A model generated the notes under the pieces. That model was given only the letters and a program-made list of their open reading frames with translations. It ran no database searches and had not been told where the DNA came from. DNA of 45,115 nt from the NCBI GenBank assembly GCA_021824045.1, contig JAKALR010000004.1, forward strand, positions 1 through 45,115, read 5' to 3'. The stretch comes from a bacterium. Lineage in GTDB: Bacteria; Patescibacteriota; Minisyncoccia; UBA6257; GWB1-50-10. Below are positions 2,932 to 31,141 of this stretch, piece by piece (position 1 is the stretch's first letter; every line of letters starts with the position of its first letter). Both the position numbers and the translations under genes were made by a program.

Positions 2932-3133
2932 GGTGATTCCGATTTCGTTTCCCCATTGAAGAAGCTTACGGAAGCGAAAAAGCTCGGTTCCGCCCTCGTG
3001 GGCGGATTTTTCGCTGAGAAGCAGCGGGCTCTTGCCGCTGGAGCAAGAGAACCGCGATTCTGAAAGACGCATGCGCTTGGACACCGTGCCTGCTCGGACT
3101 CCGAACGGTTTGCTCTGCAAAATCGGAATCACC
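2932..3133. repeat. 200-bp element closed by perfect 14-bp inverted ends
   Basis: GGTGATTCCGATTT (2932-2945) is exactly complementary to 3120-3133. Inside are two hairpins: the murB terminator (2990-3011) and CTCTTGC/GCAAGAG around 3030-3050. The interior reads open on the minus strand but shows no protein signature. It could be a small transposon remnant or a structured RNA with a terminal closing stem. Confidence 0.6.
2990..3011 (+). terminator. Rho-independent terminator after murB
   Basis: CCGCCC and GGGCGG with a TCGT tetraloop, followed by ATTTTT. It is placed 60 bp after the murB stop, inside the inverted-repeat element. Confidence 0.75.
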
Positions 3134-3157
3134 ATCGCCAGGTTGAAAATTAGCCAT

Positions 3158-3163
3158 TATAAT
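3158..3163 (+). promoter_or_regulatory. -10 box 9 nt upstream of start codon
   Basis: TATAAT lies 9 nt before the ATG at 3173. There is no Shine-Dalgarno sequence in the interval, so a leaderless transcript is likely for the membrane protein/ATPase operon. Confidence 0.5.
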
Positions 3164-3172
3164 AAGTACGAT

Positions 3173-3520
3173 ATGGTTTTCGCTTACCTAGCTCAGAAGT
3201 TCTTGTGGAGGATAGTCGATTTTTTAAGGCATTGGTATGTCCGGAGCGCGAAATTGTATTCCAACTACGTTCTCGATAAGTTGCACGACTTCGACAAGAT
3301 CCTCGCCTGGAAGATAACCCTTCAGAATCTTTTTACGCCGCTCTATAAGGATTACACGCTCATCGGATACGTCTTGGGGTTTTCCCTCCGGGCGGTCCGC
3401 CTCCTCGTCGCCTCGGTTTTTTACGCGGTTGTTTTTGCGGTCGCGATCGTCTGCTATGGCATTTGGCTTCTTATCCCGCCCGTGTTGGTCGCCGTATTTT
3501 TAGGTATTCTCCATGGGTAA
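3173..3520 (+). CDS. Small membrane protein paired with AAA+ ATPase
   Basis: Unrecognised 115-residue protein. After an N-terminal basic/aromatic part (MVFAYLAQKFLWRIVDFLRHWYV) it has hydrophobic segments around residues 55-75 and 80-112 (LLVASVFYAVVFAVAIVCYG and IPPVLVAVFLGIL), so two membrane spans are likely. The reading frame is open back to 3032, but ATG 3173 is chosen because TATAAT sits 9 nt upstream and the earlier part lies in a repeat. Its stop overlaps the start of the ATPase gene by 8 bp. This indicates translational coupling and suggests a membrane partner or anchor for that ATPase. Confidence 0.7.
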   Translation: MVFAYLAQKFLWRIVDFLRHWYVRSAKLYSNYVLDKLHDFDKILAWKITLQNLFTPLYKDYTLIGYVLGFSLRAVRLLVASVFYAVVFAVAIVCYGIWLLIPPVLVAVFLGILHG

Positions 3521-6005
3521 GGTTTACTTTAAGGATAAAAGGATTTTTCTGAGCCAGATCGAAGATTTCGTGGCGAGACTCGTCGGATATTCGGGGTATG
3601 TCGTCCTCGTTGCCGTGACCGCGATTCTGCTGTTGTCCAGGAACGTGAGATTGGAAGCCTTGGGTGTTCTTTTCGCGTTATACCTCATCGATCGGATGAT
3701 GCATATCGGAGACGGTGAGAGGAATCTGGATGAGGTGCAGAGCGGGAAGGGAAATATGCGGGATGCTTTGGCGCCGTCCTCCTACCGGATCTTGAGTTCC
3801 GCGTTCCGGAAGTCCAAGGGGGCGAATGCGAGTTTTTATTTCATCCTGCTGGAATTTTTGATTGAGCGCGATGATATCCGCGAGATTTTGAAGCGCTTGG
3901 ACATCAAGCCGGATATTTTCCTCAAGAAGGCCGGTGTTGTGTTCGAGGGAAAGGGGAAATTTTCCGGAGACAGCTACCTTCCGGTTTTGGATGGTTTGGT
4001 TTCGCAGGCGTATGCGAATGCCCTCGTCCACAACGATTCGTTTATTTACCCGCGGAATCTCTTCGCCGCCGTCTTCGATGTCGGTGATGAAGATTTGGAA
4101 AAGGTTTTCATCGCCTCGGGTCTGAAGAAGGAAGATGTTGAATCGGCGGTGGTGTTCGGCAAGTGGAGGAAAATCTTCGGCAAGGCGAGATTTATCCCGA
4201 AATCGATCGGCGGGTTCGCCCATCGCCCGGGATTTTTGCGGCATCGGGTCATGAATCGGGCGTGGACGGCAAGGCCGACCCCGACGCTCGACAAGTTCTC
4301 GACCGATCTGACCGATTTGGCGCGCGCCCGGGCAGTGGGATTTCTCATCGGGCACCAAAAAGAATATGAAGAGCTTTTGCAGATTATTGCGCGCCCGGGG
4401 AAACCAAACGCTATCCTGGTTGGTGAAGCGGGAGCGGGAAAATCGACCATCATCGATCATTTGGCTTTCGCCATCATGAAAGACGAAGTTCCTGAGGTTC
4501 TTTTCGACAAGCGTTTGGTTTCTCTCGAAATCGGGAACCTTCTGGCGAATGCCACACCAGACGTTTTAAATGCCAGGCTCCAGGCCATCGTTGAGGAAAT
4601 CATGCTTTCCGGGAACATCGTTCTCTTCGTCCCCAATATGCATGATCTCTTCAGGACGTCATCGGAAACCGTGAATGCCATCGACGTTATCCTGCCCATC
4701 ATGAAGGATGCGGCTATCCCCGTCGTCGGGGAAACCTATCCCCGGGAATTCAAGATGTACATCGAGCCCCGGTCCGATTTCTTGGAGCAGTTTGAGGTGG
4801 TGCGGGTTGAGGAGATCAGTGAAGAGGAGGCGGTGAAATTCCTCATCTACCAGAGCCTGCTTTTGGAGCGGGAATACCGCGTATTCATGCCGTTCAGCGC
4901 CATTAAGGAATGCGCATATCTCGCGAAGCGGTACTTCCACGCAAAGCCGCTGCCGGGGAGCGCCGTCGATCTTTTGAAACAAGCGCTTGCCAAAGCGGTC
5001 GAGGGGAAGAAAAAGTCAATCGCCGTCCAAGACATCGATCTGGTGGCCGAGAAACTTTCCCGAATCCCGATTCAGCGGGTTACCGCGAATGAGGCGGCGA
5101 AGCTCCTGGGGTTGGAAGACGTCATCCACAAAAAACTGATCAATCAAGATGCGGCGGTCTTGGCGGTCTCGCGAGCGCTCCGGGAATATCGGAGCGGACT
5201 TTCGCGGAGAGGCGGTCCCATCGCCACCTTCCTGTTTGTCGGCCCGACCGGCGTCGGGAAGACGGAACTTTCGAAAATACTAGCCGAGGTGCAATTCGGT
5301 TCCAAAACCGCCATGCAGCGGTTTGATATGTCCGAGTACCAGGACAAAACGAGCATCTTCCGCTTGATCGGCACTCCCGATGGATCGAAGACGGGAACGC
5401 TGACCGACGCGGTATCAGAAAATCCGTATTCCTTGGTGCTGCTCGATGAATTTGAAAAAGCGCACCCCGACGTCTTGAATCTCTTCTTGCAGGTTTTCGA
5501 CGACGGGCGCCTGACCGACAGCCTGGGGAAGACGGTTGATTTTCAAAATACGATCATCATCGCGACATCGAACGCGAACTCCGATTTCATCAAGTCGGAA
5601 ATAGAACGGGGGAAAAGCGTCGAAAGCATTTCTGAAGAGTTGAAGAAAAAACTTTCCGACTTCTTCCGCCCCGAACTCCTGAACCGGTTTTCGGACATCG
5701 TTGTTTTCCGGGGGCTCAAGGAGGATGAGATCAAGAAGATCGCGGGGCTCTTGATCGATGATTTGAAAGAAACCTTGGGTGAGGAGAAAGGAATTGACAT
5801 CGTCTACGATGACGCGGTTTTGGGGGAACTCGGCAGGCGCGGCTACGATCCGGTTTTCGGCGCGCGGCCCTTGCGGAAGGTTATTTCCGACAGCGTGAAA
5901 AGTGTCTTGGCCGATAAGATTCTCGAGGGGAGCCTTGGAAGCGGGGACAGCGTCGTAATTTCCCTGAAAAACGGCGCATTTGATTTCCAAGTCTCAAAAG
6001 ATTAA
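3513..6005 (+). CDS. Membrane-anchored ClpC-like double AAA+ ATPase
   Basis: An 830-residue Clp/Hsp100-type ATPase. The N terminus has two hydrophobic spans (about residues 25-45 and 48-62), unusual for Clp proteins, then a Clp-N-like helical region (about 90-220). AAA1 has Walker A GEAGAGKST (about 304), but its Walker B region reads NIVLFVPNMHDLF where ClpB has IILFIDEIH, so the Asp-Glu pair is lost. AAA2 is intact, with GPTGVGKTE (about 577), LVLLDEFEKAHPDV (about 642) and the C-terminal GYDPVFGARPLRK. No ClpP gene is nearby. It probably acts at the membrane as an unfoldase in which AAA1 binds but may not hydrolyse ATP. Calling it clpC would overstate the case. Confidence 0.85.
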   Translation: MGKVYFKDKRIFLSQIEDFVARLVGYSGYVVLVAVTAILLLSRNVRLEALGVLFALYLIDRMMHIGDGERNLDEVQSGKGNMRDALAPSSYRILSSAFRKSKGANASFYFILLEFLIERDDIREILKRLDIKPDIFLKKAGVVFEGKGKFSGDSYLPVLDGLVSQAYANALVHNDSFIYPRNLFAAVFDVGDEDLEKVFIASGLKKEDVESAVVFGKWRKIFGKARFIPKSIGGFAHRPGFLRHRVMNRAWTARPTPTLDKFSTDLTDLARARAVGFLIGHQKEYEELLQIIARPGKPNAILVGEAGAGKSTIIDHLAFAIMKDEVPEVLFDKRLVSLEIGNLLANATPDVLNARLQAIVEEIMLSGNIVLFVPNMHDLFRTSSETVNAIDVILPIMKDAAIPVVGETYPREFKMYIEPRSDFLEQFEVVRVEEISEEEAVKFLIYQSLLLEREYRVFMPFSAIKECAYLAKRYFHAKPLPGSAVDLLKQALAKAVEGKKKSIAVQDIDLVAEKLSRIPIQRVTANEAAKLLGLEDVIHKKLINQDAAVLAVSRALREYRSGLSRRGGPIATFLFVGPTGVGKTELSKILAEVQFGSKTAMQRFDMSEYQDKTSIFRLIGTPDGSKTGTLTDAVSENPYSLVLLDEFEKAHPDVLNLFLQVFDDGRLTDSLGKTVDFQNTIIIATSNANSDFIKSEIERGKSVESISEELKKKLSDFFRPELLNRFSDIVVFRGLKEDEIKKIAGLLIDDLKETLGEEKGIDIVYDDAVLGELGRRGYDPVFGARPLRKVISDSVKSVLADKILEGSLGSGDSVVISLKNGAFDFQVSKD

Positions 6006-30867: not shown

Positions 30868-31141
30868 GCCGTGGTAGCTCAGTGGTAGAGCATTCGCCTG
30901 AACTCTTCGGGCACCGATTCAGCAATGAGTCGGAGAAAACTGGGTGAATTCGGGGGAACTTCGTAAGAACAATCCCGAGCCAAGCCCCAATGCAGGATTG
31001 GGGAAGGTGTAGAGACTATCCCTTCGGGGAGTACTCCGATGCAAATCGGGGGAAGCGCCCAGCTCCGCGCAAGCGGATGATGATATAGTCCAACTTCGCA
31101 GGAAGAGCGATTGGTCGGGGGTTCGATTCCCTCCCGCGGCA
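30868..31141 (+). tRNA. tRNA-Phe (GAA) interrupted by a group I intron
   Basis: Exon 1 (30868-30899) gives GCCGTGG, the D-arm GCTC/GAGC, stem TTCGC and CT. Exon 2 (31102-31141) starts GAAGA, then GCGAT, T-arm GGGGGTTCGATTCCCTC and acceptor CCGCGGC with discriminator A. Joined, the anticodon loop reads CTGAAGA, anticodon GAA. The acceptor pairs 7 of 7 with one G-T. The intron sits between T33 and G34. CCA is not encoded. Confidence 0.9.
30900..31101 (+). ncRNA. Group I self-splicing intron (IC3-like), 202 nt
   Basis: The exon end GCCT pairs with GGGC in the intron (P1), giving the required U-G pair at the 5' splice site. The intron ends in G. Core motifs like those of cyanobacterial tRNA-Leu introns are seen: GTGAATTCGGGGGAAC, AATCCCGAGCCAAGCCC, GGTGTAGAGACTA and GATATAGTCC. 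P2 is CCGATTC/GAGTCGG. There is no homing endonuclease frame; it is near the minimum size for the class. Confidence 0.9.

What the first reader, a model, noticed from the sequence alone, without database searches (positions are those of the whole stretch)
30868..31141. tRNA-Phe(GAA) split by a small IC3-type group I intron between T33 and G34
P1 with its U-G pair, the terminal G, and core motifs AATCCCGAGCCAAGCC, GTAGAGACTA and GATATAGTCC are all visible. Joined exons give a normal tRNA-Phe. The classical bacterial hosts of such introns are tRNA-Leu, -Ile, -Arg and -fMet, so Phe as host and the position before G34 are notable. The 202-nt intron has no endonuclease gene.
Basis: partly seen in the sequence, partly recalled or inferred. 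Interest (0 to 1): 0.75.

Follow-up and report, generated by a model that had tools for sequence, protein, structure and literature searches.

The report
tRNA-Phe gene split by ribozyme intron
The only phenylalanine tRNA gene of this tiny-genome bacterium is cut in its anticodon loop by a small self-splicing RNA intron; the same insertion recurs across the Patescibacteria, and its 3' end seems to hold the split tRNA in a stand-in anticodon hairpin until splicing.

Summary
tRNA-Phe(GAA), 30868-31141, is interrupted by a 202-nt group I intron (30900-31101) between U33 and G34. Rfam, ARAGORN, an unconstrained fold and compensatory changes in relatives agree. It is the only tRNA-Phe found in a 97.7%-complete, 612-kb patescibacterial genome, so splicing must work if the cell is to live.

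It is not isolated. A P1+P10 pattern found 69 split tRNA-Phe candidates in 84,980 species; every title naming a lineage is CPR/Patescibacteria. I reconstructed 66 distinct genes: all split at U33|G34, all ending in omega-G. Three congeners carry the intron. A fourth has an uninterrupted tRNA-Phe in the same neighbourhood, and a Liptonbacteria genome has nearly the same intron with the same odd anticodon stem, which points to horizontal transfer.

New here: 49 of 66 introns have a short 3' tail without canonical P9, and in 41 of these the tail pairs (at least 4 bp) with the 3' exon's anticodon strand (39-43), across the splice site, with strong covariation. Introns with a real P9 mostly lack this.

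[quoted passage not shown] I could not read it. Subgroup IC3 is plausible but unproven. Splicing is inferred, not shown.

The parts
30868..30899 (+). 5' exon of tRNA-Phe(GAA): acceptor strand, D arm, anticodon strand 27-31, C32, U33
   Evidence: ARAGORN with introns, joined exons called tRNA-Phe
30900..31101 (+). group I intron, 202 nt, ends in omega-G (31101)
   Evidence: Rfam RF00028 53.6 bits; boundary fixed by relatives with introns starting AAA
31102..31141 (+). 3' exon of tRNA-Phe: anticodon G34A35A36, 37-38, strand 39-43, variable loop, T arm, acceptor strand, A73 (no CCA encoded)
30896..30912 (+). P1: exon GCCU (30896-30899) with guide sequence GGGC (30909-30912), U33.G wobble at the 5' splice site; extended by GAA/UUC
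   Evidence: sequence; U.G pair in 18/18 relatives, compensatory change at the outermost pair
30903..30908 (+). P10 strand CUCUUC, complementary to exon 2 GAAGAG (31102-31107); five pairs if the tail helix is formed at the same time
   Evidence: sequence; a pattern built on P1+P10 finds 69 further candidate genes, 66 distinct genes reconstructed
30914..30933 (+). P2 with GCAA tetraloop
   Evidence: MFE fold, compensatory changes
30940..30946 (+). P3 5' strand CUGGGUG, pairs with 31056-31062
30950..30978 (+). P4 (30950-30955 with 30973-30978) and P5 (UUC/GAA, GUAA loop 30963-30966)
30979..31008 (+). P6/P6a (GCC/GGU; CCCCAAU/AUUGGGG)
   Evidence: compensatory changes
31014..31018 (+). P7 5' strand GACUA, pairs with UAGUC 31086-31090 (guanosine-binding helix)
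   Evidence: invariant in the 18 aligned relatives
31019..31051 (+). two extra hairpins in J7/3 (31019-31030 and 31034-31051)
   Evidence: MFE; compensatory changes; insertion relative to the Rfam model
31056..31062 (+). P3 3' strand CGCCCAG
31064..31077 (+). P8 hairpin, GCAA loop
31086..31090 (+). P7 3' strand UAGUC
31096..31110 (+). stand-in anticodon hairpin across the 3' splice site: intron tail UCGC (31096-31099), loop AG|GAAGA, exon 2 GCGA (31107-31110)
   Evidence: MFE; covariation across species

Best explanation
[quoted passage not shown] The pre-tRNA folds with acceptor, D and T arms already formed. The 5' anticodon strand is held by the intron's guide sequence (P1, U33.G at the cleavage site). 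In place of a normal P9, the intron's 3' tail imitates that 5' strand and pairs with exon-2 positions 39-43, presenting the 3' splice site in a 7-9 nt loop. Exogenous guanosine bound in P7 cuts after U33; the freed U33 then attacks after omega-G with P10 (UCUUC/GAAGA) aligning the exons; the joined strands 27-31/39-43 form the real anticodon stem. It spreads mainly by vertical descent plus occasional exchange of the whole intron together with its matching anticodon arm, not by an own endonuclease. Shown by sequence comparison: gene, boundaries, core, tail-exon covariation, allele distribution. Inferred: catalysis, guanosine use, the role of the tail helix, exchange as mechanism.
For: Rfam hit over cut-off. 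Normal joined tRNA-Phe and no other tRNA-Phe in the genome. 66 distinct genes with the same site, omega-G in all, acceptor pairs 7/7; the backwards control pattern gave zero hits in both genome sets. Unconstrained MFE of the precursor shows acceptor, D and T arms, P1, P2, P3, P4, P5, P6a, P8 and the tail hairpin, z=-4.4. 47 of 74 consensus pairs have compensatory changes. Tail helix: 41 of 49 short-tail introns pair over 4-5 contiguous bp, 32 of 49 over all 5, where a random intron 5-mer does so 0.46% of the time; permuting exon strands between stem types, 0 of 5000 as good; covariation score 0.537 against 0.281 shuffled (0/500) and at most 0.175 for slid partners. Only 5 of 17 long-tail introns, nearly all with a P9 hairpin, reach 4 bp. 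tRNA-Asn introns of the same family end in a P9-like hairpin and a different tail. Same-genus G001 has an uninterrupted tRNA-Phe in the same neighbourhood; Liptonbacteria L141 clusters with the window's intron (98/96) at 92% identity over aligned columns.
Against: No RNA data. The Rfam score is only slightly over the cut-off. The tail helix is just 4 bp in the window's own sequence; 8 of 49 short-tail introns do not form it; its innermost pair shares a base with the sixth P10 pair. The Liptonbacteria copy branches next to the window with weak support (85/71). A 2.3% gap in the genome could hide another tRNA-Phe.
Confidence: 0.85

Rival explanations
1. Ordinary group I intron; the tail-exon complementarity is a by-product and does nothing. 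For example, it is a relic of how the intron inserted, or selection merely avoids harmful tails.
For: 8 of 49 short-tail introns lack it; a few tails remained unchanged when the exon changed (L119 against L120).
Against: The complement follows the exon through many stem types in both intron clades. A relic would decay, and introns with a P9 mostly lack it.
Confidence: 0.3
2. The gene is a dead or degenerating copy and another tRNA-Phe serves the cell.
For: A U27.U43 mismatch in the joined anticodon stem; genome 2.3% incomplete.
Against: No other tRNA-Phe found here and single matches in three congeners; the Liptonbacteria copy keeps the same mismatch; core and tRNA are intact with compensatory changes.
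Confidence: 0.03
3. The insert is removed by a protein (archaeal-type tRNA endonuclease) rather than self-splicing.
For: Only that a tRNA anticodon loop is interrupted.
Against: Full group I core with P1, P7, omega-G and P10; no bulge-helix-bulge is needed to explain it; bacteria lack that enzyme (general knowledge, not tested here).
Confidence: 0.01

Closest known systems
Group IC3 introns of bacterial tRNA genes (tRNA-Leu(UAA) of cyanobacteria and plastids, tRNA-Ile(CAU) of Azoarcus, tRNA-Arg(CCU), tRNA-fMet)
   Same: About 200 nt, no ORF, in the anticodon loop, U.G in P1, omega-G, GNRA L2, no P5abc
   Different: Host tRNA-Phe, site before G34, hairpins in J7/3, no canonical P9 in the window's copy; tail pairs with the 3' exon (details of the classical introns from own knowledge)
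[quoted passage not shown]
   Same: Same phylum and kind of element; the title announces a novel insertion site in tRNA genes
   Different: Could not be read; whether it covers tRNA-Phe, U33|G34 or the P9-less 3' end is unknown
tRNA-Asn(GUU) group I intron of the same genome (contig C19) and family
   Same: Same phylum-specific setting, about 190 nt, same ribozyme class
   Different: Site 35|36, P9-like hairpin at the 3' end, no tail-exon mimicry
Group I introns in 16S and 23S rRNA of CPR bacteria (PMC11270868)
   Same: Same ribozyme class and hosts; two such matches lie in this genome's 23S gene
   Different: rRNA host, often with LAGLIDADG endonuclease genes according to that paper

Membership tests
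Group I self-splicing introns | conserved core (P3-P8, P7 guanosine site) | tested here: met
   Rfam RF00028 over gathering score; invariant P7 strands; compensatory P3, P4, P6a and P8 pairs
Group I self-splicing introns | U.G pair at the 5' splice site in P1 | tested here: met
   18 of 18 sequences
Group I self-splicing introns | terminal omega-G | tested here: met
   66 of 66
Group I self-splicing introns | guanosine-dependent splicing | not testable with these tools
   needs in vitro transcription
Subgroup IC3 | tRNA anticodon-loop host, small size, GNRA L2, no P5abc | tested here: met
Subgroup IC3 | P9 with GNRA loop docking into P5 | tested here: not met
   window copy has no intron-internal P9; nearly all of the 17 long-tail relatives have one
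Subgroup IC3 | short J7/3 without P7.1/P7.2 | tested here: not met
   two supported hairpins between P7 and P3
Subgroup IC3 | closest in phylogeny to reference IC3 introns | not tested
   no reference IC3 sequences were loaded
Mobile (homing) group I intron | encoded homing endonuclease | tested here: not met
   202 nt, no sense ORF of 90 aa or more

The most novel reading that the evidence does not exclude
In tRNA-Phe introns of Patescibacteria the canonical P9 is replaced by a helix between the intron's 3' tail and the 3' exon. The intron thus supplies stand-ins for both strands of the anticodon arm and is co-adapted with the arm of its host tRNA, so intron and arm can only be exchanged together.
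Probability: 0.6. Interest if true: 0.65.

Novelty: new variant of a known kind. Interest (0 to 1): 0.52.

Why it matters
An essential single-copy tRNA in many reduced genomes depends on a ribozyme, and current tRNA finders miss it: ARAGORN in default mode skipped this gene, so CPR genomes can appear to lack tRNA-Phe. If the tail-exon helix is real, it is a group I 3' splice-site architecture in which exon sequence completes the ribozyme. That is directly testable in a 274-nt transcript, and it would explain why the intron and anticodon stem travel together.

Tried and rejected
ARAGORN's anticodon for the C19 gene (Thr-UGU) was rejected: U.G, omega-G and loop length give Asn(GUU) split 35|36. 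I first suspected a similar mimicry in tRNA-Asn tails; rejected, since those tails belong to a P9-like hairpin. The first P9 classifier counted 4-bp chance stems in 12-14 nt tails; replaced by tail length. Literature searches for bacterial tRNA-Phe group I introns found none; cyanobacterial 'group I introns' of 22-49 nt in tRNA-Arg, -Gly and -Lys (PMC5733544) look far too short for group I introns and were not used. The decayed-copy idea was rejected on gene count and conservation.

Full report
What is there. The gene at 30868-31141(+) is tRNA-Phe(GAA): exon 1 30868-30899, intron 30900-31101, exon 2 31102-31141. Default ARAGORN misses it; with introns allowed it is found with a 202-nt intron. 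Rfam Intron_gpI matches at 53.6 bits. Joined exons are called as a 72-nt tRNA-Phe with one U27.U43 mismatch.

Boundary. Intron and exon 2 both begin GAA, so four placements give the same tRNA here. The group I rules (U.G in P1, omega-G) choose U33|G34. Relatives settle it: where the intron begins AAA, only U33|G34 gives CUGAAGA. P1 is GCCU/GGGC and P10 is CUCUUC/GAAGAG.

Setting. The window is contig C2 of a 612-kb, 97.7%-complete genome in the family of Ca. Jorgensenbacteria GWA1_54_12 (inferred: the same tRNA-Phe intron, on a contig of the same 105,816-base length, stands in G014 of the same family and in the named record L136). Among 42 Rfam tRNA matches no other tRNA-Phe occurs. Other group I matches: tRNA-Asn(GUU) on C19, and two in the 23S rRNA gene on C27.

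Distribution. BLAST found the intron in three congeners (94-95%) and diverged copies in other families, but not in congener G001. A pattern combining D arm, P1 and P10 hit 69 stretches in a collection of 84,980 species; every title naming a lineage is CPR (Jorgensen-, Lipton-, Wolfe-, Harrison-, Yanofsky-, Berkel-, Doudna-, Magasanik-, Gracilibacteria and others). In the window's order 34 of 244 genomes match, in a phylum-wide sample 5 of 380, with zero hits of the backwards control. The pattern is exact and assumes GGTAGAGC and GAAGA, so absence elsewhere is not proven. 66 distinct split genes were reconstructed, all U33|G34 and omega-G; for six pattern hits no 3' half was found by the script, so they remain candidates.

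Structure. The unconstrained fold of the precursor keeps acceptor, D and T arms and shows P1-P6a, P8, two J7/3 hairpins and a hairpin across the 3' splice site (z -4.4). On 18 relatives, 47 of 74 consensus pairs have compensatory changes, including P1, P2, P3, P4, P6a, P8 and both J7/3 hairpins; P7 strands are invariant.

The 3' end. In 49 of 66 introns only 8-17 nt follow P7, too short for a normal P9. In 41 of these the tail forms 4-5 contiguous pairs with exon-2 positions 39-43, loop 7-9 nt. The complement follows the exon: CAGCU/GGCUG, AUGCU/GGCAU, CACGC/GCGUG, UAUCC/GGAUG, UUCC/GGAA, UCGC/GCGA (window). Shuffles never reach the observed score and sliding destroys it. Of the 17 long-tail introns, nearly all with a P9 hairpin (usually a GNRA loop), 5 have such pairing. 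Because P1 occupies the 5' anticodon strand, 39-43 would be unpaired in the precursor; I infer that the tail takes its place and stands in for P9. The mechanism is inference; the covariation is measured. Relatedness of the sequences inflates shuffle tests, so the test between distinct stem types (0 of 5000) and the slid controls carry more weight than the raw counts.

History. In G001 the same neighbourhood (DedA to gpmI) holds an uninterrupted tRNA-Phe with a different anticodon stem (GCAGCC...GGCTGG), while the intron-bearing congeners have ATTCGCC...GCGATT. The same odd stem and a 92%-identical intron (aligned columns) occur in a Liptonbacteria genome of another family. Simplest reading: exchange of tRNA plus intron at this locus; direction unresolved.

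Novelty. Classical bacterial hosts are other tRNAs (own knowledge; PMC8450103 for fMet and Ile2). That some tRNAs of CPR-dominated genome sets carry group I introns is on record (PMC8172020), and a preprint on a novel tRNA insertion site in Patescibacteria exists (cited in PMC12641178) but is not held. I therefore claim only the tail-exon helix and the survey as probably new.

Noticed in passing
L043 (contig C19) 340-600, - strand: Second interrupted tRNA of the genome: tRNA-Asn(GUU) split at 35|36 by a 188-nt group I intron with a P9-like hairpin; ARAGORN mislabels it Thr(UGU). Ten more tRNA-Asn cases in relatives.
   Followed up: partly
L068, L079 (same family): tRNA-fMet(CAU) genes with group I introns, apparently also at 33|34.
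   Followed up: no
L041 about 3064-3321 and 4090-4350 (contig C27): Two group I intron matches inside the 23S rRNA gene, which spans 4.4 kb instead of 2.9 kb.
   Followed up: partly
L107, L112, L117, L124, L141, L142, L149, L154 (P6 region of the intron): A recurring palindromic repeat (roughly CTTCGCTAAAGCTACGGATTGCAAGCAAGC ... GCTTGCCTGCCGTAGC) is inserted in P6 of several tRNA-Phe introns from different lineages.
   Followed up: no
intron tree: Two deep intron clades differ in J7/3: two hairpins (window type) or one hairpin of the form GCGGGTGAGTCCCAACAATAATCCCGC.
   Followed up: partly
contig C28 about 55000-55071, - strand: tRNA called Pyl(CTA) by ARAGORN looks like tRNA-Arg(CCU) with C instead of U at position 33.
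   Followed up: no
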